NCBI GenBank assembly: GCA_954871525.1
Contig: OX940865.1
Span: 8,680,001 to 8,744,000, forward strand
Source: Parietaria judaica
Taxonomy: Eukaryota; Streptophyta; Magnoliopsida; Rosales; Urticaceae
Direction of reading: 5' to 3'
Length of the DNA: 64,000 nucleotides
Below are positions 16,725-64,000 of the stretch, piece by piece (position 1 is the stretch's first letter; every line of letters begins with the position of its first letter). Position numbers and translations under genes: made by a program. Under the pieces are notes generated by a model. It was not told the DNA's origin, searched no databases, and saw only the letters and a program-made list of their open reading frames with translations.

Positions 16725-16840
16725 AAATATAAATGAATTGCTTATATTGGTGAGATATATTCTTTGGTTGTGTTGTGTAGGTATGTAAATTTCTTTGTTT
16801 AATTATATCATATCTTTTATCAATTATTTATAGCACACTG

Positions 16841-17579: not shown

Positions 17580-17886
17580 CAGTGTATGTATATTTATTTT
17601 CATAAATACCAATAAGTTATCATTGATATATTTTTTGAACGTTGAGCTTTAAGGAAAATGAATATTACACAACCGCAGTTTCAGGAACTATTATAAAACC
17701 ATATGCTTTAATTAAATGAATCTATTATTCCACCTCAAGTGATAATACTGAATACTAGCAACATTGAACAATATTCTAACAAAGAAATATATATGGTATT
17801 AATTCTAGCGATATATATATATATATATAATATATCATTTGACAAATAAGGTTAATTAATGTTATCTATTCCCTTGATATTCATAT

Positions 17887-18116
17887 CAGTGGCGGAACCA
17901 GGAATTATGTACCGGGGGGGCTAAATATAATTTTTTTTGTCAAAACTTAACTTGAGGGGGTTATATTTAAATTTTGGTGATAGTTAAGAGGGGGCTGGAC
18001 TAAAATTTTATATGAAATTACACTAAAAAAAATAAAAATAGGGCATTATTGTACAATTTTTTTTTTTGGAGGGGGTGGTTTCAACCACCTCCCCTTTCTA
18101 AATACTTCCGCCACTG
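17887..18116. mobile_element. hAT MITE with CAGTGGCGGAA ends and 8-bp TSD
   Basis: The 230-bp element begins CAGTGGCGGAACCAGG and ends CTTCCGCCACTG. It is flanked by a perfect 8-bp duplication ATTCATAT (17879-17886 and 18117-18124). Its terminal CAGTGGCG(G)AA closely matches the ends of the autonomous hAT element at 21416-24977, so it is a likely non-autonomous partner. No gene inside. Confidence 0.85.
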
Positions 18117-18124
18117 ATTCATAT

Positions 18125-19813: not shown

Positions 19814-19884
19814 TTTTCTTTTCTTTTCTTAGGAAAGTTTGCAGTGTTTTTATAAGCAGTGTGGTTCTCATGTTTAATGTGGTA

Positions 19885-20298: not shown

Positions 20299-21269
20299 GG
20301 GTAAACTGCGGCTAATGTACCCAATGTTTGATTTTCTGCGGATTATGTACCCAATGTTTATTTTTGGCGGCTAATGTACTCAATGTTTGATCCGTTAGAT
20401 ATTTTTGGGTTTTCCGTCAGTTGACCGTTAGAGAGTTATATGTATACTTTTCGTATTTTTGACATAACTCACTCATTTTTTGTCCAAATTTTATGCACGA
20501 CCTATGGTTGGAAAGATAAGAGATAGATCTACAACTTTAATGTTTTAAGTTTTGTAAAATCAGTTTAAAAAAAATACGAAATTTCAAGTACAACGTAAAA
20601 CTGGACATTAGTTTAATGCAAAATATTTGTTTCGAGCAAATTTTAATATACTTAATGACTTTTTATGATGAAACGTAAAAGTAAAAAGTTGTAGATAAAT
20701 GTTTTATCTTTCCAACGGATGTTTATTTATAAATTTTGGATAAAAAACGAATGAGTTATGCCAAAAATATGAAATATTATTTCACATCACATCTTTTATA
20801 TTTTTGGCATAACTCACTCATTTTTTGTCCAAAATTTATAAATAAACAACCGTTGGAAAGATAAAAAGTTTATCTACAACTTTTTAGTTTTACGTTTCAT
20901 CATAAAAAGTCATTAAGTATATTAAAATTTGCTCGAAACAAATATTTTGCATTAAACTAATGTCCAGTTTTACGTTGTACTTGAAATTTCGTATTTTTTT
21001 AAAACTGATTTTACAAAACTTAAAACATTAAAGTTGTAGATCTATCTCTTATCTTTCCAACCATAGGTCGTGCATAAAATTTGGACAAAAAATGAGTGAG
21101 TTATGTCAAAAATACGAAAAGTGTACATATAACTCTCTAACGGTCAACTGACGGAAAACCCAAAAATATCTAACGGATCAAACATTGGGTACATTAGCCG
21201 CCAAAAATAAACATTGGGTATATAATCCGCAGAAAATCAAACATTGGGTACATTAGCCGCAGTTTACCC
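20299..21269. mobile_element. Near-perfect 971-bp foldback (MULE-type) with 9-bp TSD
   Basis: Almost the whole segment is one palindrome: GGGTAAACTGCGGC at the left end is mirrored by GCCGCAGTTTACCC at the right, and the match continues inward for about 450 bp per arm. It meets in a short AT-rich centre near 20770-20800. It is flanked by a perfect 9-bp duplication TAGTTTTAG (20290-20298 and 21270-21278). It contains no gene. Within each arm short units such as GTACCCAATGTTT repeat three times. Confidence 0.85.
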
Positions 21270-24400: not shown

Positions 24401-24977
24401 ATAGATATGCGTTCATCCGAAGATATGAAAAGTTTGAAAGGTATTGGTGCTCTTTCTCAAAAAATGGTAGAGACAAAAAGAAATGGTGTGTATACACTTG
24501 TTTATCGTCTGATTACTCTAGCACTGATCTTACCTGTGGCTACTGCAACTGTTGAGAGAGTTTTTTCTGCTATGAATATTATCAAGACTCGGTTAAGAAA
24601 TCGAATGGGAGATCAATGGATGAATGATAGTATGATCGTGTACATCGAGCGAGAGATTTTTGATTGTATTGACAACGAGAAAATTCTACAATACTTTCAA
24701 AATATGAAATCTCGGCGTCAACTTCTGCAATAAGTATTTAAGTTTTTTCTTTTTAAGATTAGTTATGATTATTTTAGGATTTTCTTTAAGATTAGTTACG
24801 ATTAGTTTTTTTTTTTTTTTTTTTACTTCTTTCGATTAATAAAAATTTTATATCATGTGACATTGAGATTTTGAGTTATTAATATTATTTTTAAGTTATT
24901 TCATTTTGCATTATTTTTTCAAGATTTTTTTTTATAAAATAGTGCCCCCCCGGTCGAAAAAGCTGGCTTCGCCACTG
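21416..24977 (+). mobile_element. Autonomous hAT transposon with 8-bp TSD
   Basis: The 3562-bp element begins CAGAGGCGAAGG and ends CTTCGCCACTG, terminal inverted repeats CAG(A/T)GGCGAAG. It is flanked by a perfect 8-bp duplication GTGGCACC (21408-21415 and 24978-24985). It contains one uninterrupted hAT transposase gene (22310-24733). Both ends, the TSD and the open frame are intact, so it may still be active or was until recently. A MITE with matching ends lies at 17887-18116. Confidence 0.88.
22310..24733 (+). CDS. hAT transposase, zinc-finger MYM-type 1-like / DUF4371 family
   Basis: The 807-residue protein starts at ATG 22310 (MERYYKRKS), the usual beginning of this plant family. A frame opening at a GTG 42 bp earlier is less likely, because a splice-acceptor-like TTGTGCAG ends at 22285, suggesting a 5' UTR intron. 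Order of parts: basic N-terminus; a TTF-type zinc finger around residues 100-170 (FNPQWFKKYSNWLEYS, AYCLCCYLF, FDNWKR); a DUF4371/RNase H-like core with DESRD and RGQGYDGASNM; an RW motif (DTRWGS); and a C-terminal hAT dimerisation domain (ATVERVFSAMNIIKTRLRNRM). The core acidic residues are visible. It acts in the nucleus, cutting at the terminal inverted repeats of its own and related elements. No stop or frameshift was seen. Confidence 0.92.
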   Translation: MERYYKRKSDSAVPNDKKEKEIRLGSENNDSAAPASPLNERIGSVAKTRLIMNPTNPPSDPGTRAPILDYDSNVRDQVRRMYIQMGPCQPKDHDFQLKKFGNKFRKFNPQWFKKYSNWLEYSVTTEKAYCLCCYLFRPSNGAQSGGESFVGTGFDNWKRSEKFRLHVGDHNSAHNEAYRDMEAMRNQKQNIENVIFKKNFQTCNEYRTRLTASVDCIRFLLKQGLPFRGHDESEESINKGNFLELLHFLAEHNDEVKSVTFQNADKNLKLTSSDIQKDIVHAAASVTVNSIIDDLGDALFSILVDESRDILVKEQMAVVLRYVDNKGKVIERFVGIEHVSSTTALSLKEAIDKLLSRHKLSISRLRGQGYDGASNMQGHLNGLKSLILKENQCAFFVHCFAHQLQLALVHVAKHHNKLASLFWVVGNIVNTVCASPKRSDILQDLQADTINRAIESGERASGRGLNQTTSLIRAADTRWGSYHGTLLRLLTMFSSVVGVLETIVEDKTYSELKGEADVLLSKLQSFEVVFSLHLMIAIFGVTNELSKALQRKDQDIVNAINLVRICKQSLQTMRDSGWDSLLNKVLVFCEKHNIDIPDMNAIFKEPGRSRRNASSDTNLHYYRVEIFTSVIDMQRQELDGRFDEVNTDLLLCIACLCPDDLFISFDKQRLIKLARYYPKDFSAVNLIELEFELQNYIIDMRSSEDMKSLKGIGALSQKMVETKRNGVYTLVYRLITLALILPVATATVERVFSAMNIIKTRLRNRMGDQWMNDSMIVYIEREIFDCIDNEKILQYFQNMKSRRQLLQ

Positions 24978-30538: not shown

Positions 30539-31392
30539 TGTTGACGTGGTTTCCCACCTCAATCAGTCAAGTATGACTTGTGAGTGTATGATATTTTTGG
30601 ACGAAGCAATTTGGTGGAATTCGATCTCTCACGTTGCAAGCTCACAATTCACTCACGATATATGTATAAGTATATAAGCAGTATAAATGAGACGAGGGAT
30701 TTTTTATAGAGGTTCGTCCCAAGGCGGTAGTTGACTACTTCCTCTGTTAGTTTATTGCGACAATGAACATAGACGGATAGCTACAGGCAGCCAAATCACG
30801 TCCGAGAACAAGAAGAAATGGGGAAAGAAAGAAAGAACACAACAAGATCTCAAAATGACAAGAATGCCGGGTAGAAATTCTTCAGTATATTCTCTCAAGG
30901 TTGTAAGTGTGCGTGTGTGTTGATCTGAGCTTGAGCTTGGCATTTATAGACTTCAATTCTTCCCGTTGAACTTCCAAGAATCGAGGGGTCTTCGCTCCGT
31001 GCTGACCGGGTTGAATGGACGATCTGGCTACACGTGTCCCACGACTTCGTTCTAGTCGTCGCGTTTGAATTATGCCCGTTGGAGACTTGACTCCGTGCTC
31101 CTGGTCTTCCGTCTGAATTTGAAATGGGATGCCGGGTAGAGAATATGACGACTCTACCCTCGTCTTTTTGGGCTGCTACCGAGTGGATTTGGGCTTTAGA
31201 ACTCATTGGGCCGAGTAGCCTATGTCCATTGGTTCTTGGTCTGACTGAGAATCTCTTTGGGCTTCTTCAAATGGGCTTTTACGAATACCAGTTTATTTCT
31301 TTAAAGCCTTTTATCATAGTTTGTAAATTTAATTAATTCACAACCTTAGCACTTTATGTCACATTAAATAATGACGAATTTGTACATCAACA
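30539..31392 (-). repeat. 3' LTR of element 1
   Basis: Begins TGTTGACG and ends CATCAACA. It matches 41840-42693 with three substitutions seen by eye (near 30806, 30976 and 31167) and no indel. Confidence 0.95.
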
Positions 31393-31417
31393 GTTAGCCC
31401 CCTACTATAAAAAAATA
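31393..31417 (-). promoter_or_regulatory. Polypurine-tract region of element 1
   Basis: On the minus strand the bases before the 3' LTR read TATAGTAGGGGGCTAAC. The AGGGGG run a few bases from the LTR is the likely plus-strand primer of reverse transcription, as in other Tat elements. The same sequence borders the LTR of element 3 at 62222. Confidence 0.6.
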
Positions 31418-31743
31418 CGAAGTAAATTTTATAGTATTTACTCGATGAAATCATGTAAAATTCGTGCCGGATAGGATTAATTAAATTTGTGACTTTTGCC
31501 GCAAATCTGCATAATCCGGGCAGGATTTTGGATAATTTCGAGATCAGATGGACGGATAGGGTCTTGAAGCTGTAATCGTCGCTTCGAATTTTGGGCGGGA
31601 ACAGTTACAACACGTGTCCCATTTTGCGGAGTTCGAAGGGAATAAACTCTTCACATTCTCGTGACACAGCTGTCGTGCTGACGTGTCGCCGGATAGCTCG
31701 CTGATCTCAACCGTAGGATGAGGTTTGTTGCGTTTTTTGAGGA

Positions 31744-31786
31744 AACCCTAACCGTAGGATCAGCGACAATTTTCGAGTATAAATAC
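31744..31786 (+). promoter_or_regulatory. Telo-box and TATA box of the antisense gene of element 1
   Basis: AAACCCTAA (31744-31752) is a telo-box, a motif found in promoters of plant translation and cell-cycle genes. GAGTATAAATACTCG follows, with TATAAATA at 31779-31786, 400 bp before the antisense gene's ATG. Both motifs are conserved in element 3 (62571-62579 and 62606-62613). The position inside the element, pointing away from the 3' LTR, argues for a dedicated promoter and not LTR-driven transcription. Confidence 0.55.
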
Positions 31787-32186
31787 TCGAGTGATTCGCA
31801 TTAAATGGGCACGTCTCTTCAGCTTCAGCCCGTCGCACGTCTTTCGAAGGTAACCTCTTCTCTCTTTCCTCTATATATACTCTATATGGTATTCGAATAC
31901 CATTTTCGAATTTTTAGAGAGAGAAAACTTTGAGTTCTAGTGAGATAAACTCTGCGAATCGCCATTGGAGGTGCTCTGAGGTCTTATCTTCGTCGTCTTC
32001 TTCATCACTCTCGTAGGGGAATCAGGTTCTAGTTTCTTCTCCGTTCTTCTCTGTGAGTTCGTTTTGGGAATTGTTCTAGGTTTCTGGATATTAGTTTTCC
32101 TGTTTTCTTGAATCTTCGTACCTTCCGGTTTCTGGGTTTTTGTGCTCGTTTAGATTTCTTTCGGTTTTCTGAACTATTCTCATAAG

Positions 32187-35042
32187 ATGGGTCCTAAGAA
32201 GACGGTCTCGAAATGGCAAACGGAGTTTCTGACTACAGATTCTCCTAAGTCAGTTTTGAAACCTAAGGATCTGGTTAGGATCCGGGTAGAGTACAACATT
32301 CCTTTGTCGATAGAGCTTAGGTTACCGGGTCCAGATGAACATGCCGACGAGCAGAACTCGGACGGCTGGATCTGTTTATACCAGAGGTTTTTTGAGTCCG
32401 GGGGGCTTAGATTTCCTATTCCCGAGCTCATCCTAAAGTACCTTAGTTACCTAGGGGTTTCTATCGGGCAACTTAGCCCGAATTCTATCCGGATTTTTAT
32501 GGCCCTGCTTGTCCGGTCCCACGAATGTTTGTATTCACTTACAATATGGGACTTGTTGACGGGCTTGGTCATCAAGGCCAACGGTCAGGCCAAGGGTAGG
32601 TTTTTCCTATCCGTCAAGGAAGGGGAGATCATAACCGGTCTTCCCAAGAAGGAGAGTGCTTGGACCCACAAGTATTTCTTTTTCATGGCCGGTTAGGAAA
32701 CGCTCGGTTCTTGCCGGGCTATAGGAATGAATGGGTTCACGAGATAGGTAAGGTTCTGGGTTGGGTTTTCTATTTTTTTCTGTTTGGCTGTTTTTATGTG
32801 TTTGCTAATTTTTTTTATCTTCATCTTGTGCAGTCGAGGACCCTGAGAAGCCTAAGTCTCGTCCGATTACGGAGGAGTGGAAGGCTTTGAAGAGGAAGCT
32901 GTTCCCTAACGGTCCGGAGTTGTGGTCGAACTTCACAAAAGAGAGGTTCGAAGCTACCGGGCTTTGGGTTGAGCCTGACGAGTAGGAGTTTCCGGGTATG
33001 ATTCTTAAATCTGTCTTTTTGGCTTTGTTTCATATTTGTCTATCTTATTTTTTTCTAAGTGTGGATTTTTAACGTGTAGAGGATATGGACGCTCTTCGCC
33101 CGAAGGGTCAGAGTCTTTGTCAGAAGCGGAGGCAGGAGGGTCAAACCGGAGGTTCGGCCTCTGCTGGAGCTGCTCGTCAGGAGACGAACAGACGGGTTGA
33201 GGAGAGGGGGCCTGGCGCATCTGCGCCGGCCAAGGCTGCTCGTCAGGAGACGAGTAGGAGGAATGAGGAGACTCCTGCTCGGGAGTCTCTTGCTGAGGTC
33301 GCCTCTGGGGCGACTAAGAAGAAGGATGTCGTCGAACTTTCCGACGACGGGGAGAGCACCCCGGAGGTCACGCCTTTGGCGAAGCCTTCGGAGAGAGAGG
33401 TTGCCCCTTCTTCTGCTCCTGCTCGTCCTTCCAAGGGCGCGATCCGTCCTTCTCAGGACGGAACTGCTCCGAAGACGGGCTCAGAGGTGGCCGCGAAGAG
33501 GCCGCACGAAGGAGGGGACTCTGGGGTCCGGAAGAAGGCGAAGGGGGATCCGGCCCCGAAGGAGGCGGCAAGGAGGGACTCAGTCCCGAAAGGAGGCGTG
33601 AGGGCCTTGGAGAAGGGTAAGGGGATTGTTCGGGAGAGCGAACGCCCGAAGGAGGCCTCCCAAGGTGAGGCGAGGGAGACGGGGTTGGCTCCCCCGGTGG
33701 TTGAAGGGCAGGCTAGGGAGAAGATGGTCTCCCGGAAGGCGGGGTGCACTTGGATGGGGGACAAGGGTCTCCACAAGGCACCTAAGGTGGCGGCCGGTCT
33801 TCTCCGGCAGATTACAAATGGTGGGGTCGGCAGGGTCCCCAGGAGCATCGCGGAGAAGAGGCCGTACAAGGATATGGCCGCGGCTACAACTCTGGTAAGT
33901 GTTGCTGGCTTTAGGTTTAGGTGTTTACTTTATTCTTAAATTTTTTCTAACTTTGGCTTTTGGACGTGCAGCTCGTCGCCTCCATCAACGACATGGTCCT
34001 CGATTATGAGGACCAATTGTATGAGGCTAGAGAGGGCGCGCAGGCCTCCGAGCAGCTTGCGCTGAAGGAGAGGGAGTTGGAGGATGCCGTGGAGGGCATC
34101 CGGGTGAAGGCGGAGCAGATCGTCGTGATGGGCAGGAAGGTCGCCGCCTGTGATGCTCGGATCAAGGGGCTAGGGAATACGGTCGTTGATCTCCGGGAGA
34201 AGCTGTCAAACGCTACCCGGACGATTGAGGAGGCTCAAGGCGTGAGCGAGGCGGCCGCCAGGCAGATGCTGGCCTCTGACGCGGCCAAAGGACGGGCAGA
34301 GGAGTTGGCCAAGAGGAAGGAGGAGGAGGCCTTGGCCTTGAAGGAGGATGTGCAGCGCCTTGCTGCTGAGCTGGCTGAAGCCCGGCAACGATCCGCCGAT
34401 CGCGAGGCTGAGAAGAAAGCTGTCCGTGCCCGATATCGCCGAAAGGTGGAAGAGAGGGACGCGCTAATCGCGTGGTACAAAGGTACGGCTGCTGACAAAA
34501 GTTGCTTGGATCAAGCCGAAGGTTGCCTCGAGCTGATCCAAGACATCATTGACGGCAACGTTCAAGATTTCGAGGCTGAGAAAGAGGTCCTAGAAGGCAA
34601 CGCTGCTCGCTACCAAGCTCTCTTGGACGCGGTTCCGGCACCGCTGATAGGGTCTCCGGCTTTGTCTCCAGATGCCGAGCTGACCGATGTTCCTCTTGTA
34701 GATTTGAGCCTCCGGTCCGAGCAATCGTCCGCCAAGGAGTCTGCCTCCGAAGATCCCGCCATCGAGCCCGTCGTTGAAGATCCCGTGGCCGGAGTGACCG
34801 TCGTCGATGAGCCCACCTTGCCCGCCGTTGCTTATACCGAGGAGGTGATCCTCGAGGAGCCGACCCTGAACGAGCCCGTTGCTGCCGGGGAGGCCGTCGC
34901 CCTTGAAGAGCCCATCCTAGACGAGCCCGCTGTCGCAGAGGAGACTGCCGAGCATGGAGCCCAAGCCGGCGAAGGAGAAGGAGAAGAGAAGGAGGAGGAG
35001 GAGGACCGAGAGGTCGTGGGGGTACCCGGGGTCGACACATAG
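32187..35042 (+). CDS. Antisense spliced gene of element 1 (putative gypsy-type transposon domain plus coiled coil)
   Basis: Four exons are inferred: 32187-32747, 32834-32995, 33080-33894, 33972-35042. Introns are GT-AG, in phases 1, 1 and 0. Exon 1 encodes a globular domain (KWQTEFL, RFFESGGLRFPIPELIL, LSPNSIRIFMALLV) resembling the Pfam family called putative gypsy type transposon (Transposase_28). Exon 2 continues it (VEDPEKPKSRPITEEWKALK). Exon 3 is disordered and basic (KRPHEGGDSGVRKKAK, possible nuclear signal). Exon 4 is a long Ala/Glu/Lys-rich coiled coil with an acidic tail. The gene is antisense to gag-pol, as are the extra ORFs known in Tat elements. Lesions: TAG at 32694-32696 (also present in element 3), a 1-base difference from element 3 near 32712-32716, and TAG at 32983-32985 (a Glu codon in element 3). 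The function is unknown. Confidence 0.7.
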
Positions 35043-35506: not shown

Positions 35507-35770
35507 GGGCTTGTTGCCTTGAGGGACGGATTGAAAGCCCGGTTAGGTTTGTTACCCGGATAGGCTTGTTGCCCTATGTGACGGGTTAGTTACCCGGGTA
35601 GGCTTGTTGCCCTATGCAATGGGTTTGTTACCCAGGTAGGTTTGTACCTTATGTGGGGGTTTGTTACCCGGATAGGTTTGTTACCTTCTGCGATAGGTCT
35701 GTTACCCGGGTAGGTTTGTTACCTTAGGTGGTGGGTCTGTTACCCGGGTAGGCCTGTCGCCTTGACGGGG
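35507..35770. repeat. Tandem repeat between the antisense gene and integrase of element 1
   Basis: Units of about 19 bp of two alternating kinds (GGTTTGTTACCCGGGTAG and GGCTTGTTGCCCTATGT-like) form a dimeric array of about 38-bp period, roughly six copies. It lies where the antisense gene (plus) and pol (minus) converge. No coding role was seen. Confidence 0.8.
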
Positions 35771-35950: not shown

Positions 35951-37096
35951 TTAGGCGTAGTATTTCCTTAAGTGCATGGCATTCCAGCTGCGGAGGACTC
36001 TTGTTCCGTCCGGAGTGGCTAGCCGGTATACTCCAGGTTTCACTACTTTGGTGACGATGTAAGGTCCTTCCCAGTTGGCCCCGAGCTTGCCCGCATTCAG
36101 CTCGGCGGTGTTCTGGAAAACTTTTCTGAGGACCAACTCTCCCACTATGAATTTTCGACGTTTGACCTTTGAATTATAGTACCTAGCTGTCGAGTTTTGA
36201 TAGTTGGCAATTCTTATCAAAGCTTGTTCTCGTCTTTCGTCGATGTAGTCGAGCTGGTCTTCCCTCATTTCGTCGTTGAGTTCTGCGTCCAAAGGGGCGA
36301 ATTCCCTTTGAAGGCTGGGTGTCTCTATCTCTGCTGGTATTACGGCCTCAGTGCCGTGTACCATTGAGAAAGGGGTTTCCCCGGTGGCCCTACGCGGGGT
36401 AGTTCTGTAGGACCAGAGGAATCCTATGAGCTCGTCTGCCCATCGTCCTTTTTTGGTGTCTAGGCGTCTCTTGATCCCGTCCACTATTACCCGGTTAGCT
36501 ACTTCGGCTTGACCATTTCCCTGAGGATATCTCGGAGTGGACGTGTTCAAGGATATTTTCCAGTTTATGCAGAAGTTTTGGAATCTCGTTGAAATGAATT
36601 GTGGTCCATTGTCAGCTATTATCTCTTTTGGGAGGCCGAATCTACTGATGATGTTTTTCCATAGGAAGTTTTCTACATCAACATCTTTAATGTTTGCGTA
36701 TGATTCTGCCTCCACCCATTTTGAGAAGTAGTCGGTCACGACGAGTAGAAACCTCTTCCCAGCCGGGGCCAGGGGGAACGGTCCTACTATGTCCATGGAC
36801 CATTTCATGAACGGGTACGGGACTGAGACTGATGAGAGTTCTTCTGCTGGTCTATGTATGGACGGGGAGTGTCTTTGGCATTTGTCGCACCTTTTGGCGT
36901 AGTTTTCACTGTCCGCCAACATAGTGGCCCAGAAAAAACCTTGCCTTTTTGCTTTGTTTGCTAAAGATCTTCCTCCCGAATGGTTGCCGCATTCTCCCGA
37001 ATGGATTTCGTGAAGTACTATTTGAGCTTCGGTCTTTCCTAGGCACCTTAGGTAGGGTCCGGTATAGCTACGTTTGTACAATTTTTCCCCGATCAT
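35951..37096 (-). CDS. Element 1 integrase (C-terminal part of pol)
   Basis: The 381-residue frame starts in the HHCC zinc-binding region (HEIHSGECGNHSGG, CDKCQRH). It continues through the DDE core: D in WSMDIVGPF, D in IIADNGPQF, E in NGQAEVANR. The C-terminal part has the GELVLRKVF and GANWEGPYIV motifs of the plant gypsy integrase C-terminus. It is in the same frame as the upstream RT-RNaseH region. Only a TAA at 37136-37138 separates them, so this is not a separate gene but the end of an interrupted pol. Confidence 0.9.
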   Translation of the reverse strand: MIGEKLYKRSYTGPYLRCLGKTEAQIVLHEIHSGECGNHSGGRSLANKAKRQGFFWATMLADSENYAKRCDKCQRHSPSIHRPAEELSSVSVPYPFMKWSMDIVGPFPLAPAGKRFLLVVTDYFSKWVEAESYANIKDVDVENFLWKNIISRFGLPKEIIADNGPQFISTRFQNFCINWKISLNTSTPRYPQGNGQAEVANRVIVDGIKRRLDTKKGRWADELIGFLWSYRTTPRRATGETPFSMVHGTEAVIPAEIETPSLQREFAPLDAELNDEMREDQLDYIDERREQALIRIANYQNSTARYYNSKVKRRKFIVGELVLRKVFQNTAELNAGKLGANWEGPYIVTKVVKPGVYRLATPDGTRVLRSWNAMHLRKYYA

Positions 37097-37135
37097 GCAA
37101 AATCTAGCGCTCTGAATCCTTAGTTTCCTAGCTTT

Positions 37136-39226
37136 TTACTTGTCTCGAGGTTTGGCTCTGGTTAGGATGTAGTTAATGATTGGGGTCCTCCAATCATCCT
37201 CTTCCATTTGGATATTGCAAACTTCGCGGGTTACGCTGGGTTCGTCTATCGTTTCGACCGGGATTATCCTTTTGACCTCGGGGTCCGAAGTCGAAGCTAA
37301 CCCGGCCAGTGCGTCTGCTGACGCGTTTTCACTCCTCGGTATTTGGACTATTTCGACGTGTTCGAATTGTTGAATTAAGCATTTTACTACCGAGAGGTAT
37401 TTTTCCATCCTGTCATCTCGGGTAGCATACTCGCCACTGATCTGACTGGTAACTAGTTTTGAGTCGGAGTGGGCCCTTACTTTCCGGGCTCCCACGGCTT
37501 TTGCTAGTTTGAGGCCGGCGATGAGGGCCTCGTACTCGGTCTCGTTGTTTGTTGCGTGGAATTTCAATCGAAATGATTGTTCCAACACTTCTCCCGTGGG
37601 GGATATCAAACGAATTCCGATCCCGGATCCTCCTTGGTTTGACGCGCCGTCGACTTCGAGTTTCCATTCTCCGTCCTCGTGGCCCTCTTTTGAACCGTCG
37701 GTTGGTAATTCGATGAGAAAGTCAGCCAATACTTGTGATTTCGCACAGGTTCGGATCTTGTATTCTATGTCGAATTTGCTCAATTCGACGGCCCATTTCG
37801 TGAGCCTTCCCGATTGATTCGGGTTGTGGAGGATGATTCTCAAAGGTTGGGTCGTCATTACCATGATGGTATGGGACTGAAAGTAAGGCCGAAGCTTCCT
37901 CGCTGCGGTTATCATTGCTAGCGCGAGTTTTTCTATTGACGGGTATCTGGTTTCAGCGTCTTCCAAAGATTTGCTGATGTAGAAGATCGGCTTTTGTTCT
38001 CCGCGGTCCTCTCTCACGATTACTCCACTCACCGCCGATGGTGAGACAGCCAGATATAAAAACAATGGCTCTCCCAAGATTGGTCTGGTGAGTATTGGTG
38101 GGGTGGAGAGGTACCTTTTCAGCTTTTGGAAGGCCTCTTCGCACTCTTCGGTCCATTCGAACTTTTTATTACCTTTCAAAAGTTTGTAGAAGGGTAAACA
38201 TTTGTCCGTGGCTCTTGATATGAACCGGTTAAGAGCGGCGATTCTCCCAGTCAGCCTTTGCGTCTCTCGAACAGTCCTTGGGGAGGGCATGTTCTGGAGG
38301 GCATTTATCTGGTCGGGATTGGCTTCTATACCTCGCTGTGTGACCAGATAACCTAGGAATTTTCCTGAAGTTACCCCGAAGGTGCATTTCGTCGGGTTGA
38401 GCTTCATTTGATACTTTCGTAGTATGTTGAAGCAGTCTTCTAGGTGGGCCACGTGATCCGTTGCTTGGGAGGACTTTACCAACATATCATCGATGTAGAC
38501 TTCCATAGTTTTACCGAGATGTTCGGCGAACATTTGGTTGACCAATCTTTGATATGTGGCTCCGGCGTTTTTCAATCCGAAGGGCATAACTTTGTAACAG
38601 TATATTCCTCTATCGGTTATGAATGCCGTTTTTTCTTGGTCCTCGGGGTGCATTAGGATCTGGTTGTATCCCGAGAATGCGTCCATGAATGACAGTAGTT
38701 CGTGCCCACATGTTGCTTCAACCAGACGGTCGATATGGGGCATCGGGAAACTGTCTTTTGGACAAGCTTTGTTCAGGTCGGTAAAGTCGATGCAGACTCT
38801 AGCCTTCCCGTTTTTCTTCTTCACGACCACTGTATTTGCTAACCAGTCCGGGTATTTGACTTCCCTGATGGATCCGGTTTGCAGCAGTTTTGTGACTTCT
38901 TCATTTACGGCTTGGGCCCTGTCCGGGCCTAGCTTTCGCCTTTTTTGTTTCACCGGCTTGTAGCTCGGATCTACGTTTAGGCGATGGGTTGTGATGCTTG
39001 GGTCTATGCCGGGCATGTCCTTGTGAGACCAAGCAAAACAATCCCGATTTTTGGTCAGGAAATTTAGGAGATCTTTTCTGACGTTATTGTCTAGTCCTTT
39101 CCCGATCCCTACCCGGTGGTCCGGGTTGTCGGGGTCGATCTGGACCTGGACTGTCATTTCCAGGTTAGGTCCGTCCGTATCGGTGGTTCTTTCCTGTCCG
39201 TCGTCCTCTTTTTTGTCTACCGCCAT
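37136..39226 (-). CDS. Element 1 reverse transcriptase with two RNase H domains
   Basis: The 696-residue region contains the RT palm (FMDAFSGYNQI, catalytic YIDDMLVK), then a first RNase H (FLYLAVSPSAVSGV, YPSIEKLALAM). A second RNase H-like domain follows (LEVDGASNQGGSGIG, NNETEYEALIAGL, HSDSKLV, SADALAGLAS). The tandem arrangement with an extra archaeal-type RNase H is characteristic of Tat elements. It is bounded upstream by a TAG at 39233-39235 and downstream by the TAA at 37136-37138. The chosen start (39226) is only the first ATG after that TAG; pol would normally continue from the protease. Confidence 0.9.
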   Translation of the reverse strand: MAVDKKEDDGQERTTDTDGPNLEMTVQVQIDPDNPDHRVGIGKGLDNNVRKDLLNFLTKNRDCFAWSHKDMPGIDPSITTHRLNVDPSYKPVKQKRRKLGPDRAQAVNEEVTKLLQTGSIREVKYPDWLANTVVVKKKNGKARVCIDFTDLNKACPKDSFPMPHIDRLVEATCGHELLSFMDAFSGYNQILMHPEDQEKTAFITDRGIYCYKVMPFGLKNAGATYQRLVNQMFAEHLGKTMEVYIDDMLVKSSQATDHVAHLEDCFNILRKYQMKLNPTKCTFGVTSGKFLGYLVTQRGIEANPDQINALQNMPSPRTVRETQRLTGRIAALNRFISRATDKCLPFYKLLKGNKKFEWTEECEEAFQKLKRYLSTPPILTRPILGEPLFLYLAVSPSAVSGVIVREDRGEQKPIFYISKSLEDAETRYPSIEKLALAMITAARKLRPYFQSHTIMVMTTQPLRIILHNPNQSGRLTKWAVELSKFDIEYKIRTCAKSQVLADFLIELPTDGSKEGHEDGEWKLEVDGASNQGGSGIGIRLISPTGEVLEQSFRLKFHATNNETEYEALIAGLKLAKAVGARKVRAHSDSKLVTSQISGEYATRDDRMEKYLSVVKCLIQQFEHVEIVQIPRSENASADALAGLASTSDPEVKRIIPVETIDEPSVTREVCNIQMEEDDWRTPIINYILTRAKPRDK

Positions 39227-39288
39227 TAATTGCTACGCGGTAGATCGCTCTTGTCCGGCTTTGGCGGCCTGGATGTTCCGGAACGCGC

Positions 39289-41775
39289 TCATGTAGCAAA
39301 TTCTGGATTGCTTTTGATTTCCCTTGATTTCAACGATTTTTCCCGCCTATTCGGGAAGCGTATTAGTTGATGGTAGGTTGACGGTACGGCCTTCATCATG
39401 TGCAGCCAAGGTCTTCCTAATATCATGTTGTAAACTGACGGGCAGTCCAACACTAGGAAATTTTTGGTCTTCCCGACCCCTGCTGCTGCGATGGACAGTC
39501 GCACCGTGCCAATGACATTAATGGTTCCTCCATCGAAGCCGGTTAGCGGGATGGCTTCTCTGCTGATCTCTGTTTCTTCTACCCCCAGTTTTAGCAACGG
39601 CTCCAGGAAGATCACGTCGACTGAGCTCCCGTTATCGATTAGGATCCTGTCCATCGTATACGAGGAAACTAGGAGTGTGATGACCAACGCATCGTCGTGC
39701 GGACCAATCAGTGTGGCCGCTTCACTATCTTTGAATGAGATCTCGAAGTCTGGCTCTTGCCTCGGTACGATTACCGGTCCGGCCTTGAGCCTCCTCTGAT
39801 GGGCCTTGATGGAGTTTACCGAGTTACCATGTAGTTGGGAACCTCCCACGATAGTGTAGATTCTACCGATGGGCTCGGGGATGTCGCTGAGCTGCTCTCC
39901 GGAATTCTCCGTTTCTTCGTACGTTTGCTCGTCTGATTCCTCGAGCATGTGTACTCGTCCTCTTTTGTTAGGCTGTATGCTTTCGCGCGGCGTTCTGTGT
40001 TGCTCTTCTCTTTTCTGGCCGGTCTGGTGTTGGTTTTGGGGAGGGCTTTGCTCGATCGGTTGCCCACCTTTCAGCTCATTGCCGAAGTTTATTTCCCCCA
40101 ATTCTCCGTTGATGTACTTTTCCGCTAGGCGAGCACGGAGTACCATACAATTCTTCGTATGATGTCCGAATACTTTGTGGAAGTTACACCACGCTTTCGG
40201 GTCGTGCTTTGGGAAACCTTCGTGGCTGTATGGTGGGAAGTCTCTCGAGCTGACCAGGACTTCTCCAGGAGTTTCTTCTGCCTCGATCTGTTCTTCGGAC
40301 TCTGCAGTTTCCGAATTTACGTTGAAAACGTACGGGGTTCGCGGGTTGGGCCCGTTGTTGGCCCTCGGATTCTGGGTTTGGAATGGGTGCTTCTGGACTG
40401 GAGGGGGATTCCTTTGTCCCCTGAACGGGATGCTGTGATTCCCGGCCCTAGGCGGCGGCTGCTGCCCGGGTGGCCCGGTATTCCGCTGGTGGACGGGTAG
40501 AGACCCATGTCTCCTTCGCATGGCTTCGAGTTCTTCGTCGTGCCTGATCCAGTTGGATGATCTGTGGATTACGTCTTCGATGGAGTCGTAACGATTCACG
40601 ACGATGTCCGTTTTGAACTTCGAGTCGTACCATAATCCGGCCGTGAGCGCGGCTATGGCAGTTTCGTCACTGATCCCGTTTATTTTGACCATGGTCTTTT
40701 TGAACCTGGTCATGAAAGCTCTGAGGGGCTCTCCTCTCTCTTGCTGCAAAGCATAGAGGTTTGCCGCCGTGATCTCAGTTTCCATAAACATGGAAAAATG
40801 TTTGAGAAAAAGGGTCGTTAGCTGTCCGAAGTTGTCTATGGAACGCGGTTCAAGTTTCGAGAACCATTCCATTGCCGGGCCGACCAGATTTTCAGAGAAA
40901 TATTGGCAGCGCCCAGCGTCCAATTCGTGCGCTTCGAGATGGGCTCGCCCCATCGCAATCCTGAAGGACCTCAAGTGTACTTTGGGATCGGTCGTCCCGT
41001 CGTACTTTGGCACATATACTCGTCCGCCTTCCCTGAGTATAACGTTAGTTATGACGGGCTTAAAGGGTGTCCTTTCTGCCTCCTCCACTAGACGTTCTAT
41101 CTCGGGGGCAGCGGTAGTGGCGCTGTGCACGCGAGAGCGCACGTGAATGAGCTTCTCATTCATTTCGGCCATTGAGCGTTTGAGCTCCTCCAATTCTGTG
41201 CGTTGGGGAGCTTGTTCGGGACGCACAGCCTGGAGGGGTTCCTGTCCGTACACCGGGCTGGGATACCTCGGGTACGTGACCGGGTGGCCGTTGAGGGCCT
41301 GGCTGATGTTACGGCTTTGCTCGTACCCCGATTGTCGGTTTTGGGGTCCCGGGCGTTGGTGACTGCTCGAAGCAACATTCCCCGCATTAGACGGGTAGAG
41401 ACCCGTCAAGGGGGTAAAAAGGGGTGTACCTGTTTCAGGAGGCGGGGGAGGCGTCGCGGGTCTAGGGCCGCTGGGAAGTCGGGGCTGGTTTTGCCTTGGC
41501 GCTTGCGGATTGTCCACGTCGGCAAAGTCGAAGTGGACAGCGTCGAGCCCGGTCCGGCCTTGACTCCCAGAGCTTTGTCCCGGATTAGTCCGGTTAGCGT
41601 TCTGACGACGCTCATTTCGGGCTTGGTTGGCTTCCAGAGATTCGAGTCGCTGGCGCAACTCTCGATTCTCAGCAGCGCTAGCTTCTAGCTGAGACTGTAG
41701 GTTGCTCGATTCCGTGTTTGGATCTGGGTTGTTCACCTCAGACTCGTTCACGATTGCGATTTCGTTGTTGCTCAT
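39289..41775 (-). CDS. Element 1 gag and aspartic protease
   Basis: The frame is 828 residues from the ATG at 41775 (MSNNEIAIVNE), 60 bp after the primer-binding site. A TTG 42 bases upstream also opens the frame but is an unlikely start. A Pro/Gln-rich N-terminal part is followed by the gag capsid-like region (WFSKLEPRSI, ANLYALQQERGEPLRAF). Then comes a zinc-knuckle-like CNFHKVFGHHTKNC and an aspartic protease (LIDNGSSVDVIF, YNMILGRPWLH). After about 39345 the frame leaves the expected protease-RT linker. The linker continues in another frame to the stop at 39233, so a shift lies at the five-A run (coding strand) at 39337-39341. This is a mutation or a recoding site. Confidence 0.88.
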   Translation of the reverse strand: MSNNEIAIVNESEVNNPDPNTESSNLQSQLEASAAENRELRQRLESLEANQARNERRQNANRTNPGQSSGSQGRTGLDAVHFDFADVDNPQAPRQNQPRLPSGPRPATPPPPPETGTPLFTPLTGLYPSNAGNVASSSHQRPGPQNRQSGYEQSRNISQALNGHPVTYPRYPSPVYGQEPLQAVRPEQAPQRTELEELKRSMAEMNEKLIHVRSRVHSATTAAPEIERLVEEAERTPFKPVITNVILREGGRVYVPKYDGTTDPKVHLRSFRIAMGRAHLEAHELDAGRCQYFSENLVGPAMEWFSKLEPRSIDNFGQLTTLFLKHFSMFMETEITAANLYALQQERGEPLRAFMTRFKKTMVKINGISDETAIAALTAGLWYDSKFKTDIVVNRYDSIEDVIHRSSNWIRHDEELEAMRRRHGSLPVHQRNTGPPGQQPPPRAGNHSIPFRGQRNPPPVQKHPFQTQNPRANNGPNPRTPYVFNVNSETAESEEQIEAEETPGEVLVSSRDFPPYSHEGFPKHDPKAWCNFHKVFGHHTKNCMVLRARLAEKYINGELGEINFGNELKGGQPIEQSPPQNQHQTGQKREEQHRTPRESIQPNKRGRVHMLEESDEQTYEETENSGEQLSDIPEPIGRIYTIVGGSQLHGNSVNSIKAHQRRLKAGPVIVPRQEPDFEISFKDSEAATLIGPHDDALVITLLVSSYTMDRILIDNGSSVDVIFLEPLLKLGVEETEISREAIPLTGFDGGTINVIGTVRLSIAAAGVGKTKNFLVLDCPSVYNMILGRPWLHMMKAVPSTYHQLIRFPNRREKSLKSREIKSNPEFAT

Positions 41776-41820
41776 GTTCGCGGAGTGCTTTGAGCTTTTA
41801 GGAGTTAGCGAGATCAATTT

Positions 41821-41836
41821 CCCACAGACGGCGCCA
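41821..41836 (-). promoter_or_regulatory. Primer-binding site of element 1
   Basis: Three bases inside the 5' LTR the minus strand reads TGGCGCCGTCTGTGGG. The first nine bases are complementary to the 3' end of plant tRNA-Asp (ACGGCGCCA); the following bases diverge. The position and the TGG start fit a PBS. Confidence 0.65.
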
Positions 41837-41839
41837 AAC

Positions 41840-42693
41840 TGTTGACGTGGTTTCCCACCTCAATCAGTCAAGTATGACTTGTGAGTGTATGATATTTTTG
41901 GACGAAGCAATTTGGTGGAATTCGATCTCTCACGTTGCAAGCTCACAATTCACTCACGATATATGTATAAGTATATAAGCAGTATAAATGAGACGAGGGA
42001 TTTTTTATAGAGGTTCGTCCCAAGGCGGTAGTTGACTACTTCCTCTGTTAGTTTATTGCGACAATGAACATAGACGGATAGCTACAGGCAGCCAAATCAC
42101 GTCCGATAACAAGAAGAAATGGGGAAAGAAAGAAAGAACACAACAAGATCTCAAAATGACAAGAATGCCGGGTAGAAATTCTTCAGTATATTCTCTCAAG
42201 GTTGTAAGTGTGCGTGTGTGTTGATCTGAGCTTGAGCTTGGCATTTATAGACTTCAATTCTTCCCGTTGAACTTCCAGGAATCGAGGGGTCTTCGCTCCG
42301 TGCTGACCGGGTTGAATGGACGATCTGGCTACACGTGTCCCACGACTTCGTTCTAGTCGTCGCGTTTGAATTATGCCCGTTGGAGACTTGACTCCGTGCT
42401 CCTGGTCTTCCGTCTGAATTTGAAATGGGATGCCGGGTAGAGAATATGACGACTCTACCCTCGTCTTTCTGGGCTGCTACCGAGTGGATTTGGGCTTTAG
42501 AACTCATTGGGCCGAGTAGCCTATGTCCATTGGTTCTTGGTCTGACTGAGAATCTCTTTGGGCTTCTTCAAATGGGCTTTTACGAATACCAGTTTATTTC
42601 TTTAAAGCCTTTTATCATAGTTTGTAAATTTAATTAATTCACAACCTTAGCACTTTATGTCACATTAAATAATGACGAATTTGTACATCAACA
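41840..42693 (-). repeat. 5' LTR of element 1, with TATA box
   Basis: Near-identical partner of 30539-31392. On the minus strand CTATAAATGCC (about 42242-42251) is the likely TATA box driving genomic RNA. Confidence 0.95.
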
Positions 42694-59880: not shown

Positions 59881-61343
59881 CATGCGTCATCGCCATCATG
59901 GGGGCTCGATAACCCTCGATGGCCACCTCTAGGAAGTCGTCCGCAGCTGTACCACGAGCCTCATCTCCATTGACATCCACAAAGCCACCTCCCCACGTAA
60001 TCCGAGGAACAAAAAGAGGCGGGGCACTGGTCCGACTCCCTGCCGAAGACAGCCGGCCTATGGAGACCGAGGTCCCCTGGAAAGCAAAGGTCCTCGTGGC
60101 CCCCGGAGGGAGAGCGGCCATGGCAGGGGCCAAACAATCCCGCACATCCTGGGGAACATGCGCAACATGGGCAAACGACATGCTGATCCACAACCCCGAG
60201 TTTATCCGCAACAGCTCGAGAACAGCTTCCACGAAGCCATCCCATCTGACCTTGATAACTGCGGCCTCCTGGCGAGCGTCGGCGGCGTCTAAGCGAGAGT
60301 TCAAGAGTCCCACCGTGTTTTGTGAGGCATGGAACCGCTGGGCGTATTGTTCCATTCCGACCTCTGCAGCATGTGCTCGTTCCAACGCCCAATCGCGCGA
60401 CCTCTGAATACGACGGTTCTCACGACATAGGTGCACCGTCTCGGAAAACCCCTCCATCTCGTCGGTCCCCGACGAGCTCCCGCCAGGAATGGCGCTAGGG
60501 CCGCCACCCACGATATGGTCAAAATGGAATGGCATGGCGGCAAGGCTGGACGTCCCGGGCCCATAACTATCGTACTGGTATTGCAAAAGCAACACGAAAA
60601 CATCAGGCGAAACCTAAACACCACGAAAATAAAGAATTAGGAAATAAAAAGATTACCGACTCAGCAGGACCGGTCCTGAGGAATTGGTCAGGAAGGCTCG
60701 AAATAACCGGCACCTCCGGGCCAGGAATCATGGGGACGGGAAGGTCGGACGACATCATTCCCATGAAATCGGGAGGCACCACCGCCGTATAGTCGAGGGG
60801 CGCATCAGATAAATCACCAAAGTACGTGCCGGGCCCCTGAAAGGCATGTATGAGCCAAGCCCCATGCCTGGCAGAGAAGGCGTAATGGGAAAAATGGCGT
60901 TCGGTCCACCAGAAAAGTACGAAAGAGGGACGTCTCCGTCCGCTTCGGGATGGCGTCTCCCGCGCCTCATCCGGGAGGTACCAGTGGGCTGATGATGACC
61001 TCCGGAAGGAGTTTGGTCCTGGTCCATACCTGCAAAAAAAAAAGAGGCGTTAGAGAATATGCAATATACAACATAAATGAACACTCACCAAAGAAAAAGC
61101 AAAATTCACACATACACCGAAGGAGTTCCTATCAAAAAAGACGACACTCCAATCAGATCACGAATACGAGCTGGCAAGAGCCCGAGGTTGCATCCACCCG
61201 ATTGAGCCCAAGAAGCCCTCGTCAAATGATGGGAAAAGCGCCCAGGGATTGCACATTCCACCATGAAAAAGCGGAGGAATTCCCTATCGATGGCCATCGT
61301 CGAACGATACGACCGAAGACGTCCGAAGTACCGAGGGGAAAAT
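59792..61343 (-). pseudogene. Antisense gene of element 2, interrupted by element 3
   Basis: On the minus strand at least three blocks look coding. The first is 61297-61106 (LRFFMVECAIPGRFSHHL, LPARIRDLIGVSSFL). The second is from 61029, after a T-rich acceptor ending GCAG, with MDQDQTPSGGHHQPTG and PLSYFSGGPNAIFPIT; it is frameshifted near 60840-60860 and ends near 60657. The third is 60613-59792, with an open frame rich in charged residues (HLCRENRRIQRSRDWALERAHAAEVGMEQY) and a possible coiled coil. The gap between the last two is only about 43 bp, short for a plant intron, so that junction is uncertain. The frame runs through the (TA)n tract at 59827-59876. The domain is not recognised. 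Its place matches the antisense ORFs of Tat elements. Confidence 0.5.
59826..59876. repeat. (TA)n microsatellite
   Basis: A perfect TA run of about 25 units lies near the end of the antisense gene of element 2. Confidence 0.95.
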
Positions 61344-61462
61344 TATTGACGTGGTTTCCCACCTCAATCAGTCAAGTGTGACTTGTGAGCGTATGATAAT
61401 TTTGAATGAAACAATTTGGTGGAATTCGATCTGTCGCGTTGCAAGCTCACGATTCACTCACG

Positions 61463-61502
<40 letters not shown>

Positions 61503-62221
61503 GTATATAAGCGATATAAATGAGACGAGGGATTTTTTATAGAGGTTCGTCCCAAAGTGGTAGTTGACTACTTCCTCTGTTAAATTATTACGACAATGAA
61601 CATAGACGGATAGCTACAGGCAGCTAGATCACGTCTGAGAATAGAAAAGAAAAGAGGAGGGAAGAAAGAATACAATGAGATCTTAAGTGAACAAGAATGC
61701 CGGGTAGAATTTCTTCGGTGTATTCTCTCAAGGTTGTAAGTGTGCGTGTGTTGATCTGAGCTTGAGCTTGGCATTTATAGGTTTCAATTCTTCCCGTTGG
61801 ACTTCCAGGAATCGAGGGGTCTTCACTCCATGCTGACCGGGTTGAATGGACGACCTTGCTACACGTGTCCCATGACTTCGTTCTCGTCGTCGTGTTTGAA
61901 TTATGCCCGTTGGAGGCTTGACTCCGTGCTCCTGGTCTTCCGTATGAGTTTGAAATGGGATGCCGGGTAGAGAATATGACGATTCTACCCTTGTTTTTCT
62001 GGACAGTTGTCGAATGGATTTGGGCCTTAGAACTCATTGGGCCGAATAGCGTGTATCCGTTGGTTTTTGGTCTGATTGAGAGTCTCATTGGGCTTCTCAA
62101 ATGGGCTTTTGCGAATACTAGTTTATTTCTTTAAAGCCTTTTATCATGGTTTGTAAATTTAATTAATTCACAACCTTAGCACTTTAGGTCATTTAAATAA
62201 TGACGAATTTGTACATCAACA
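61344..62221 (-). repeat. 3' LTR of element 3
   Basis: The 878-bp LTR begins TATTGACGTGG, where element 1 has TGTTGACGTGG, and ends CATCAACA. A longer TA tract (about 61464-61505) accounts for most of the extra length. It is clearly more diverged from the element 1 LTRs than those are from each other. Confidence 0.9.
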
Positions 62222-62570
62222 ATTAGCCCCCTACTATAAAAAATACGAAGTAAATTTTATAGTATTTACTCGATGAAATCATGTAAAATTCGTGCCGGAT
62301 AGGATTAATTAAATTTGTGACTTTTGCCGCAAATCTGCATAATCCGGGCAGGATTTTGGATAATTTCGAGATCAGATGGACGGATAGGGTCTTGAAGCTG
62401 TAACCGTCGCTTCAAATTTTGTGCGGGAACAGTTACAACACGTGTCCCATTTTGCGGAGTTCGAAGGGAATAAACTCTTCACATTCTCCTGACACAGCTG
62501 TCGTGCTGACGTGTCGCCGGATAGCTCGCTGATCTCAACCGTAGGATGAGGTTTGTTGCGATTTTCGAGG

Positions 62571-62613
62571 AAACCCTAACCGTAGGATCAGCGACAATTT
62601 TCGAGTATAAATA
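62571..62613 (+). promoter_or_regulatory. Telo-box and TATA box of the antisense gene of element 3
   Basis: AAACCCTAA (62571-62579) and TATAAATA (62606-62613) occupy the same places as in element 1, within a well-conserved 400-bp block (62222-62690 against 31393-31860). Confidence 0.55.
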
Positions 62614-63015
62614 CTCGAGTGATTCGCATTAAATGGGCACGTCTCTTCAGCTTCAGCCCGTCGCACGTCTTTCGAAGGTAACCTATTTCTCTTTCCTCTA
62701 TATATACTCTGTGTGGCATTCGAATGTCATTTTTGAATTTTAGAGAGAGAAAAGCTTTGAATTTTTAGAGAGAGAAGCTCTGCGTCCGCCATTGTTGAAG
62801 GGGTCATCAGGTTTTCTCCGTGTTTTAGAGATCCAGGTTCTTCACTTTTTCTTGAATCTTTTCTCTGCGAGTCTGTTTGAAAGTTTTTCTAGGTTTCTAG
62901 ATATCGCTTTTTCGGTTTTTCTTGAATCTCTACACACATCAGTTTCTGGGTAGCTTTTTCTGGATTTTTTGTGCTCGTCTAGATAGTTTTCGGTTTTTTC
63001 TAGGATACTTATAGA

Positions 63016-64000
63016 ATGGGCCCTAAAAAGACGATCTCGAAATGGCAGACGGAGTTTCTGACTACAGATTCTCCCAAGTCAGTTCTAACACCTAAAGATC
63101 TGGTTAGGATCCGGGTAGAATATAAGATTCCCCAATCGATAGAGCTTAGATTGCCGGGTCCGGATGAACACGCCGACGAGTAGAACTCAGACGGCTGGAT
63201 CTGTGTATACCAGAGGTTTTTTTGAGTCCGGGGGGCTTAGATTTCCTATTCCTGAACTTATCCTTAGGTATCTTACTTACCTAGGGGTTTCTATCGGGCA
63301 GCTTAGCCCGAATTCTATCCGGATCTTGATGGCTTTGCTTGTCCGGTCCCATGAGTGTTTGTATTCACTTACAATCTGGGACCTGTTGACGGGCTTGGTC
63401 ATCAAGACCAATGGTCAGGCCAAGGGTAGGTTTTTCCTATCCGTCAAGGAGGGGGAGATCATAACCGGTCTTCCCAAGAAGGAGAGTGCTTGGACCCACA
63501 AGTATTTCTTCTTCATGGCCGGCTAGGAAACGCTCGGTTCTTGGCCGGGCTATAGGAATGAATGGGTCCACGAGATAGGTGAGATTCCAGGCTGGGTTTT
63601 CTAATTTTTTCTTATTCGGCTGTTCTTGTGTGTTTGCTAATTTCCTGTCGCTTTCTTATGCAGTCGAGGACCCTGAGAAGCCTAAGTCTCGTCCGATCAC
63701 AGAAGAGTGGAAGGCTTTGAAGAGGAGGCTTTTTCCTTCTGGTCCGGAGCTGTGGTCGAACTTCACGAGGGAAAGGTTTGAAGCTGCCGGGCTTTGGGTT
63801 GAGCCTGACGAGGAGGAATTTCCGGGTATAATTTCTGAACCTATCTTTTTGGTTTTGTTTTGTATCTTTTTTTTTTATTTTTTCTAAGTGTGGATTTTTG
63901 ACGCGCAGAGGATATGGACGCTCTACGCCCGAAGGGTCAGAGTCTTCGCCAAAGGCGGAGACAAGAGGGTCAGACCGGAGGTTCGGCCTCGGCTGGAGCT
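63016..64000 (+). pseudogene. Antisense gene of element 3, partial and with lesions
   Basis: The gene parallels 32187-35042: exon 1 63016-63578, exon 2 63664-63825, exon 3 from 63909 to the window edge, with GT-AG introns at the same places. Lesions in exon 1: TAG at 63181-63183 (a Gln codon in element 1), one extra T in the T-run near 63217-63223, and a TAG at 63524-63526 shared with element 1. After the shared TAG the frame runs in phase into PGYRNEWVHEI and, after splicing, VEDPEKPKS. Exon 2 has no stop (EPDEEEFPG). The rest is outside the window. Confidence 0.7.

What the first reader, a model, noticed from the sequence alone, without database searches (positions are those of the whole stretch)
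31744..35042. A promoter-bearing, multi-exon gene carried antisense inside a Tat retrotransposon
Seen: on the strand opposite gag-pol there is a telo-box, a TATAAATA box, an ATG, four exons joined by three GT-AG introns, and about 900 residues of coding sequence (globular domain, basic disordered part, coiled coil, acidic tail). Element 3 has the same promoter block, ATG, splice sites and reading order. Known: extra antisense ORFs occur between pol and the 3' LTR in plant Tat elements, and a domain labelled putative gypsy type transposon exists; their function is not established. Inference: the element carries an independently transcribed accessory gene, perhaps a nuclear coiled-coil protein that aids the element or counters silencing.
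Basis: partly seen in the sequence, partly recalled or inferred. Interest (0 to 1): 0.78.

Follow-up and report, generated by a model that had tools for sequence, protein, structure and literature searches.

The report
Spliced antisense gene in plant retrotransposon
A jumping element in a plant genome carries, on the strand opposite its own replication genes, a real protein gene cut up by introns; reverse-strand genes are already known in this group of elements, this copy is broken, and the intron structure is the less documented part.

Summary
The architecture is real: telo-box, TATAAATA, ATG at 32187, four exons joined at exactly the stated GT-AG junctions, stop at 35042, opposite gag-pol, between pol and the 3' LTR of a young Tat element (LTRs 99.65% identical). 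The '900 residues' are not open: this copy (E2) has a stop and a frame break in exon 1 and a stop in exon 2. The family gene is still genuine. Against the partial copy at 61340-64000 (E3), 50 of 71 exon differences counted are third-position and Ka/Ks is 0.068 (bootstrap 0.033-0.120; 264 codons). Exon 1 has 83 relatives, the named ones Brassicaceae; 45 of 83 change course or end at the same exon-1 border. The exon-1 domain is TRP28-like: below Pfam's cutoff, but 5 of 6 published conserved positions match. So this is the antisense accessory gene known from Retand-type elements (PMC11963269; Grande gene23, PMC7264820). I did not find its multi-exon structure in the papers I could read. Expression and function are untested; most likely a nuclear coiled-coil accessory factor. 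Its introns can persist because the sense genomic RNA cannot splice them.

The parts
30539..31392 (-). 3' LTR of element E2
   Evidence: 99.649% identical to 41840-42693 over 854 bp; flanked by ACGAT on the + strand
41840..42693 (-). 5' LTR of element E2
35951..41859 (-). gag and pol of E2; the RT to integrase frame carries one in-frame stop (37136-37138); gag-protease and RT frames are separate
   Evidence: ORFs, translation, Pfam gag, RVT_1, RNase H, RVT_3, rve
35546..35757 (.). tandem array, 38-bp unit, 5.6 copies, between pol and the antisense gene
31364..31888 (+). promoter block, nearly invariant between E2 and E3
   Evidence: 10 differences in 523 aligned bases
31743..31750 (+). telo-box AAACCCTA
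   Evidence: also in E3 at 62571
31778..31785 (+). TATAAATA box
   Evidence: also in E3 at 62606
31850..32186 (+). possible 5'UTR intron (GTAACC donor, acceptor not fixed); a prediction
   Evidence: conservation collapses after it; donor motif also in E3 at 62678
32187..32747 (+). exon 1, TRP28-like domain; contains a stop (32694-32696) and a frame break (between 32697 and 32717)
32748..32833 (+). intron 1, 86 nt, phase 1
   Evidence: splice sites also in E3
32834..32995 (+). exon 2; contains a stop (32983-32985)
32996..33079 (+). intron 2, 84 nt, phase 1
   Evidence: splice sites also in E3
33080..33894 (+). exon 3, basic low-complexity linker; NLS-like motif at 33496-33543
33895..33971 (+). 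intron 3, 77 nt, phase 0
   Evidence: not visible in E3
33972..35042 (+). exon 4, predicted coiled coil (residues 1-215) and acidic tail, stop at the end
61340..62222 (-). 3' LTR of a second copy, E3
   Evidence: 90.2% identical to the E2 LTR
62223..64000 (+). E3 promoter block, exon 1 (ATG at 63016), intron 1, exon 2, intron 2 and start of exon 3; exon 1 broken

Best explanation
A broken copy of a genuine, spliced, protein-coding accessory gene carried antisense between pol and the 3' LTR of a Tat-clade, Retand-type retrotransposon. Shown here: the exon-intron layout, coding constraint between two copies, homology of exon 1 to proteins of other plants that share its border, and the lesions. 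Inferred: Pol II transcribes the gene from the block beside the 3' LTR; splicing joins a TRP28-like domain (exons 1-2), a basic linker with a nuclear signal (exon 3) and a coiled coil with an acidic tail (exon 4); the product works in the nucleus as an oligomer on DNA or chromatin, and in trans, so that broken copies can still spread. Being antisense lets the introns survive retrotransposition, because the gag-pol-sense genomic RNA carries them reversed and cannot splice them out. My odds: 0.9 for a selected, spliced antisense gene of this known kind; 0.6 for a nuclear protein; 0.35 for a regulatory or anti-silencing role rather than nuclear import or targeting of the integration complex.
For: Third-position bias 13/8/50 in exons against 11/12/11 in introns 1 and 2 (sums mine); Ka/Ks 0.068, 0.033-0.120, 264 codons; splice sites of introns 1 and 2 kept in E3; T-rich introns; 83 exon-1 relatives, of which 20 join exon-2-like sequence, 12 run on into F/L-rich sequence and 13 end within one residue at the same border; 5 of 6 TRP28 positions; Tat domain order; published antisense TRP28 genes and Grande gene23 (PMC11963269; PMC7264820).
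Against: This copy and the other copy in the window are both broken. No transcript was seen. Selection was measured on one pair, 264 of about 869 codons; most of exon 3 and all of exon 4 untested. PF04195 stays below cutoff in exon 1 and in the 4 of 8 relatives that hit it. 38 of 83 relatives could not be classed at the border. Exon 4 found no relatives. Structure models are too weak to support a DNA-binding fold.
Confidence: 0.82

Rival explanations
1. The antisense transcript itself is the product: an RNA that pairs with genomic RNA and feeds siRNA silencing or copy-number control, the protein being secondary or a relic.
For: Both copies in the window are broken for protein; antisense RNA regulation is discussed for retrotransposons (PMC7264820; Ty1 in PMC12786077, passages); the block around the promoter is more conserved than the exons.
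Against: Ka/Ks 0.068 and third-position bias need a translated product during the E2-E3 divergence. Both roles may coexist.
Confidence: 0.08
2. The TAG shared by E2 and E3 in exon 1 is tolerated: ribosomes read through it (or translation restarts behind it) in the working gene of this family.
For: Both copies carry it, and behind it Ka/Ks is still 0.077 (0.021-0.177; 96 codons), which a dead downstream part would not show if the stop were older than the split.
Against: The stretch around it is unusually alike (4 of 50 third positions differ against 13 of 48 at the exon start), as expected if it was exchanged recently between copies; it may also have arisen twice. Further lesions break both copies anyway. 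Two copies only.
Confidence: 0.1
3. A host gene captured recently by this element, with its own promoter and introns.
For: Gene-like promoter motifs and introns; some relatives are annotated under host-gene names.
Against: E2 and E3 differ at about 30% of synonymous sites, so the gene is old in the family; relatives at 26-35% identity among 45 aligned of 83; Vicient found no TRP28 outside transposable elements (PMC11963269). An ancient capture is not excluded.
Confidence: 0.04
4. Chance open frames and motif matches in decaying transposon DNA.
For: Two stops and a frame break interrupt the frame in E2.
Against: Resampling, codon-position bias, Ka/Ks, relatives.
Confidence: 0.01

Closest known systems
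TRP28 (PF04195) antisense ORFs of Retand-lineage elements (Vicient 2025, PMC11963269; outline, background, structural section and discussion read)
   Same: Antisense, between pol and 3' LTR; TRP28-like domain with 5 of 6 conserved positions; pol-3'LTR region of 4558 bp, within the reported 2933-6566; a tandem array in that region.
   Different: Described there as ORFs; the word intron is not in that text. Here one gene of four exons, and a Pfam score below cutoff.
Grande gene23 of maize (Gomez-Orte et al. 2013; paper not held; known to me here through PMC7264820, parts 1 and 2 of 3 read)
   Same: Antisense accessory gene with its own promoter, product reported nuclear, kept in most copies of the family.
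   Different: Exon structure of gene23 and sequence similarity to this gene not examined here.
Ogre extra ORF with the plant mobile domain (PMC6317226, passages)
   Same: Sister lineage of the Tat clade with an extra gene.
   Different: No plant mobile domain hit in exon pieces or in 8 relatives.
HTLV antisense gene HBZ (as described in PMC11963269, and PMC7264820)
   Same: Works-like analogy only: an antisense-encoded nuclear regulator in a retroelement.
   Different: Antisense promoter inside the 3' LTR in HTLV; here the block lies in the internal region beside the LTR. No homology tested.

Membership tests
Tat clade of plant Ty3/gypsy elements | LTRs, target duplication, gag and pol with RT, RNase H and integrase | tested here: met
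Tat clade of plant Ty3/gypsy elements | Second (archaeal-type) RNase H between RNase H and integrase, as in Ogre and Retand (PMC6317226) | tested here: met
   RVT_3 at residues 527-644 of the RT piece, after RNase H and before the integrase piece
Retand lineage | Placement in the RT tree | not tested
   no reference sequences were at hand; I say Retand-type
Retand lineage | Long pol-3'LTR region with antisense ORFs | tested here: met
   4558 bp between 31392 and 35951; antisense frames; range from PMC11963269
Pfam PF04195 (Transposase_28) | Score above the curated cutoff of 26.2 bits | tested here: not met
   18.6 bits; so I say TRP28-like and do not file it under the Pfam family
Pfam PF04195 (Transposase_28) | Published conserved positions G, P, L, P, N, F with their spacing (PMC11963269) | tested here: met
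   5 of 6 in E2 and in E3; no other of 29,423 stop-free positions in the window's six frames reaches 5; 52 of 83 relatives have 5 or 6
Grande gene23 type | Antisense transcript from an own promoter | not testable with these tools
   motifs only
Grande gene23 type | Nuclear protein | not testable with these tools
   NLS-like motif only

The most novel reading that the evidence does not exclude
The antisense ORFs scattered through the pol-3'LTR region of Retand-type elements are, in many families, exons of one ancient spliced gene whose intron positions are kept at least across rosid plants; antisense orientation is what lets an intron-bearing gene live inside a retroelement, with its own splicing-controlled expression and an almost invariant promoter block beside the 3' LTR.
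Probability: 0.5. Interest if true: 0.58.

Novelty: new member of a known kind. Interest (0 to 1): 0.42.

Why it matters
Antisense TRP28 genes are reported in 97% of recently active Retand clusters (PMC11963269) and have no known function. If they are spliced genes, ORF surveys have been counting exons, and expression and domain studies should be redone with spliced models; full-length proteins could then be made and tested. It also offers a simple rule for how introns persist in a retroelement.

Tried and rejected
Chance frames: rejected. Recent host-gene capture: disfavoured. Fold of the exon-1 domain: two AlphaFold2 models of low confidence (mean pLDDT 54.4 and 53.2), and Foldseek against the PDB gave nothing at E <= 0.001, so no fold is claimed. 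Solved structures by sequence: none. Exon 4 against the protein collection: none at E <= 0.001 among the 7996 candidates scored; coiled-coil composition may have crowded out true relatives. Viral and prokaryote contigs: no relatives; no exact match to a stretch of the promoter block in viral contigs. Bacterial promoter scan: not informative for a plant. More copies from the window's own genome, needed for a many-copy Ka/Ks and to tell constraint from exchange in the promoter block: the tool did not complete.

Print check: introns or splicing of the Retand/TRP28 antisense gene were sought; in the listings, and in the parts of papers that I opened, I saw no statement of it. The primary papers on gene23 and on extra ORFs are not held, so it may be in print.

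Full report
WHAT IS THERE. The window holds a young Tat-clade element, E2, on the minus strand: LTRs 30539-31392 and 41840-42693, 99.649% identical over 854 bp, the same 5 bases (ACGAT on the + strand) on both sides, and gag, RT, RNase H, RVT_3 and integrase domains. The second RNase H between RNase H and integrase is the mark of Ogre and Retand elements (PMC6317226, passages). The RT-to-integrase frame has one in-frame stop at 37136-37138, and the gag-protease and RT frames lie 56 bases apart in different frames; two separate ORFs are common in Retand elements (PMC11963269), so the second may be natural. Between pol and the 3' LTR, on the opposite strand, lies the gene of the finding.

THE GENE MODEL. 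The stated exon ends are exact: 32187-32747, 32834-32995, 33080-33894, 33972-35042; each intron begins GT and ends AG; the frames give phases 1, 1, 0. Introns of 86, 84 and 77 nt are T-rich, and two of three have CTAAY near the acceptor. The telo-box and TATA box are at 31743 and 31778 in E2 and at 62571 and 62606 in E3; CACGTG and ACGTGTC motifs are in both. The exon-1, exon-3 and exon-4 stretches are open for longer than Markov resamples (2, 0 and 0 of 2000), with the caveat that they were chosen as stop-to-stop stretches.

THE COPY IS BROKEN. In the coding frame E2 has TAG at 32694, a frame break between 32697 and 32717 and TAG at 32983. E3, cut by the window end, shares the TAG at 32694 and has a stop and a frame break of its own. 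Neither copy can make the full protein by the standard reading.

THE FAMILY GENE IS REAL. E2 and E3 differ in the exons mostly at third positions: first/second/third 13/8/50 over the exon-1, exon-2 and early exon-3 stretches counted, against 11/12/11 in introns 1 and 2 (sums mine). Ka/Ks over 264 stop-free aligned codons is 0.068 (bootstrap 0.033-0.120): exon 1 before the break 0.063 (172 codons), exon 2 0.082 (52), start of exon 3 0.074 (30), each with wide limits; the 10 codons of the exon-1 tail have one synonymous difference. This is purifying selection on a protein, measured on one pair of copies and less than a third of about 869 codons; most of exon 3 and all of exon 4 could not be tested.

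RELATIVES. Exon 1 up to its stop (169 aa) found one relative, E 3e-10. A profile of the two found 83 proteins, the weakest at E 5.7e-16. Those with names are from Brassica and Sinapis; many are from unnamed contigs. Identity to the window piece is 26-35% among the 45 of 83 that I aligned. At the homologous end of exon 1: 20 of 83 join exon-2-like sequence (18 by pattern, P0062 and P0070 by eye from the same output), 12 continue after a glycine into mostly F/L-rich sequence as expected of an unspliced T-rich intron, 13 end within one residue, 38 could not be classed, of which 36 lack the border motif. The 18 joined by pattern are all from annotated genome records, so their gene models may be computed, not observed. 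P0078 (letters) reads, in my interpretation, through an in-frame intron of about 30 codons at the same place, and ends just after a counterpart of the exon-3 border. I conclude that intron 1, and perhaps intron 3, sits at a homologous position in Brassicaceae; intron 2 is undecided. Exon 4 found nothing.

THE DOMAIN. PF04195 hits exon 1 at 18.6 bits, below the 26.2 cutoff; of 8 relatives scanned, 4 hit it (best 16.8 bits) and 4 do not. The six conserved positions published for TRP28 (PMC11963269) are met 5 of 6 in E2 and E3; no other of 29,423 stop-free positions in the six frames of the window reaches 5; of the 83 relatives 52 have 5 or 6 and 31 fewer, some of these being short pieces. I call the domain TRP28-like. 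Structure models are too weak to use. Exon 3 is basic with a bipartite-NLS-like motif; exon 4 has 215 residues without proline and with helical periodicity (3 of 1000 shuffles), then an acidic tail; in 60-residue windows the periodicity is weak or absent (17 to 424 of 1000). A Pfam hit to a coiled-coil family, DUF7491, is below cutoff. The coiled coil is likely, not shown.

THE PROMOTER BLOCK. From 31364 to 31888 E2 and E3 differ at 10 of 523 aligned bases; the next 75 differ at 25. The LTRs are 90.2% identical, introns about 80%, and 54 of 178 synonymous sites differ. Either the block is under unusual constraint, or it was exchanged recently between family members, as retroelements can by template switching (recalled). 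The 3' part of exon 1, which holds the shared TAG, is also unusually alike (third positions 4 of 50, against 13 of 48 at the start), which favours exchange for that stretch. Behind the shared TAG Ka/Ks is still 0.077 (0.021-0.177), so the TAG is either younger than the selection, exchanged, arisen twice, or tolerated. One pair cannot decide. The edge close to the GTAACC at 31850 suggests a 5'UTR intron, unproven.

HOW IT PROBABLY WORKS. Inference: Pol II transcribes the gene from the block beside the 3' LTR; splicing and translation give a nuclear oligomeric protein that acts in trans. Because the gene is antisense, its introns are reversed in the genomic RNA and survive reverse transcription; a sense intron would be lost (the same logic underlies intron-marked reporter elements, PMC12786077, passages). 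That E2 inserted recently although pol and the accessory gene are damaged fits supply in trans but does not prove it: the lesions may be younger than the insertion.

WHAT IS KNOWN. Antisense ORFs at this place are a recognised trait of Retand elements, with TRP28 in 97% of clusters; a DNA-binding role is predicted there, and function is unknown (PMC11963269). For Grande gene23 a review reports transcription from an own promoter and a nuclear protein, and asks that antisense and spliced transcripts be looked for (PMC7264820). 'Introns' is counted 0 times in both papers. So this is a new member of a known kind; the conserved multi-exon layout and the measured selection are what it adds, subject to primary papers I could not read.

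Noticed in passing
31364-31888 and its counterpart in E3 (from about 62195 to 62715): Block beside the 3' LTR nearly identical between two copies whose synonymous sites differ at about 30%; constraint or recent exchange, undecided.
   Followed up: partly
32694-32696 and the equivalent place in E3: Both copies share one TAG in exon 1, yet the codons behind it look selected.
   Followed up: partly
52761-60613: A further Tat-type element on the + strand, decayed, with a 49-bp tandem array (58928-59586) and a different antisense frame (59795-60613) that has no PF04195 hit and no position with 5 of 6 TRP28 residues.
   Followed up: partly
20299-21269: A stretch of about 970 bases that matches its own reverse complement at 96.4%, a near-perfect palindrome.
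   Followed up: no
22262-24733: Long open frame of 823 codons that looks by eye like a hAT-type transposase; no search was made.
   Followed up: no
4589-19828, minus strand: Several related open frames (DNA copies 73-79% alike) that look by eye like Kunitz-type protease inhibitors; no search was made.
   Followed up: no
P0015, P0018: Relatives of this gene are named in Brassica genomes as 'meiosis-specific protein ASY2-like' and 'At3g60930-like'; possibly element genes carrying host-gene labels.
   Followed up: no
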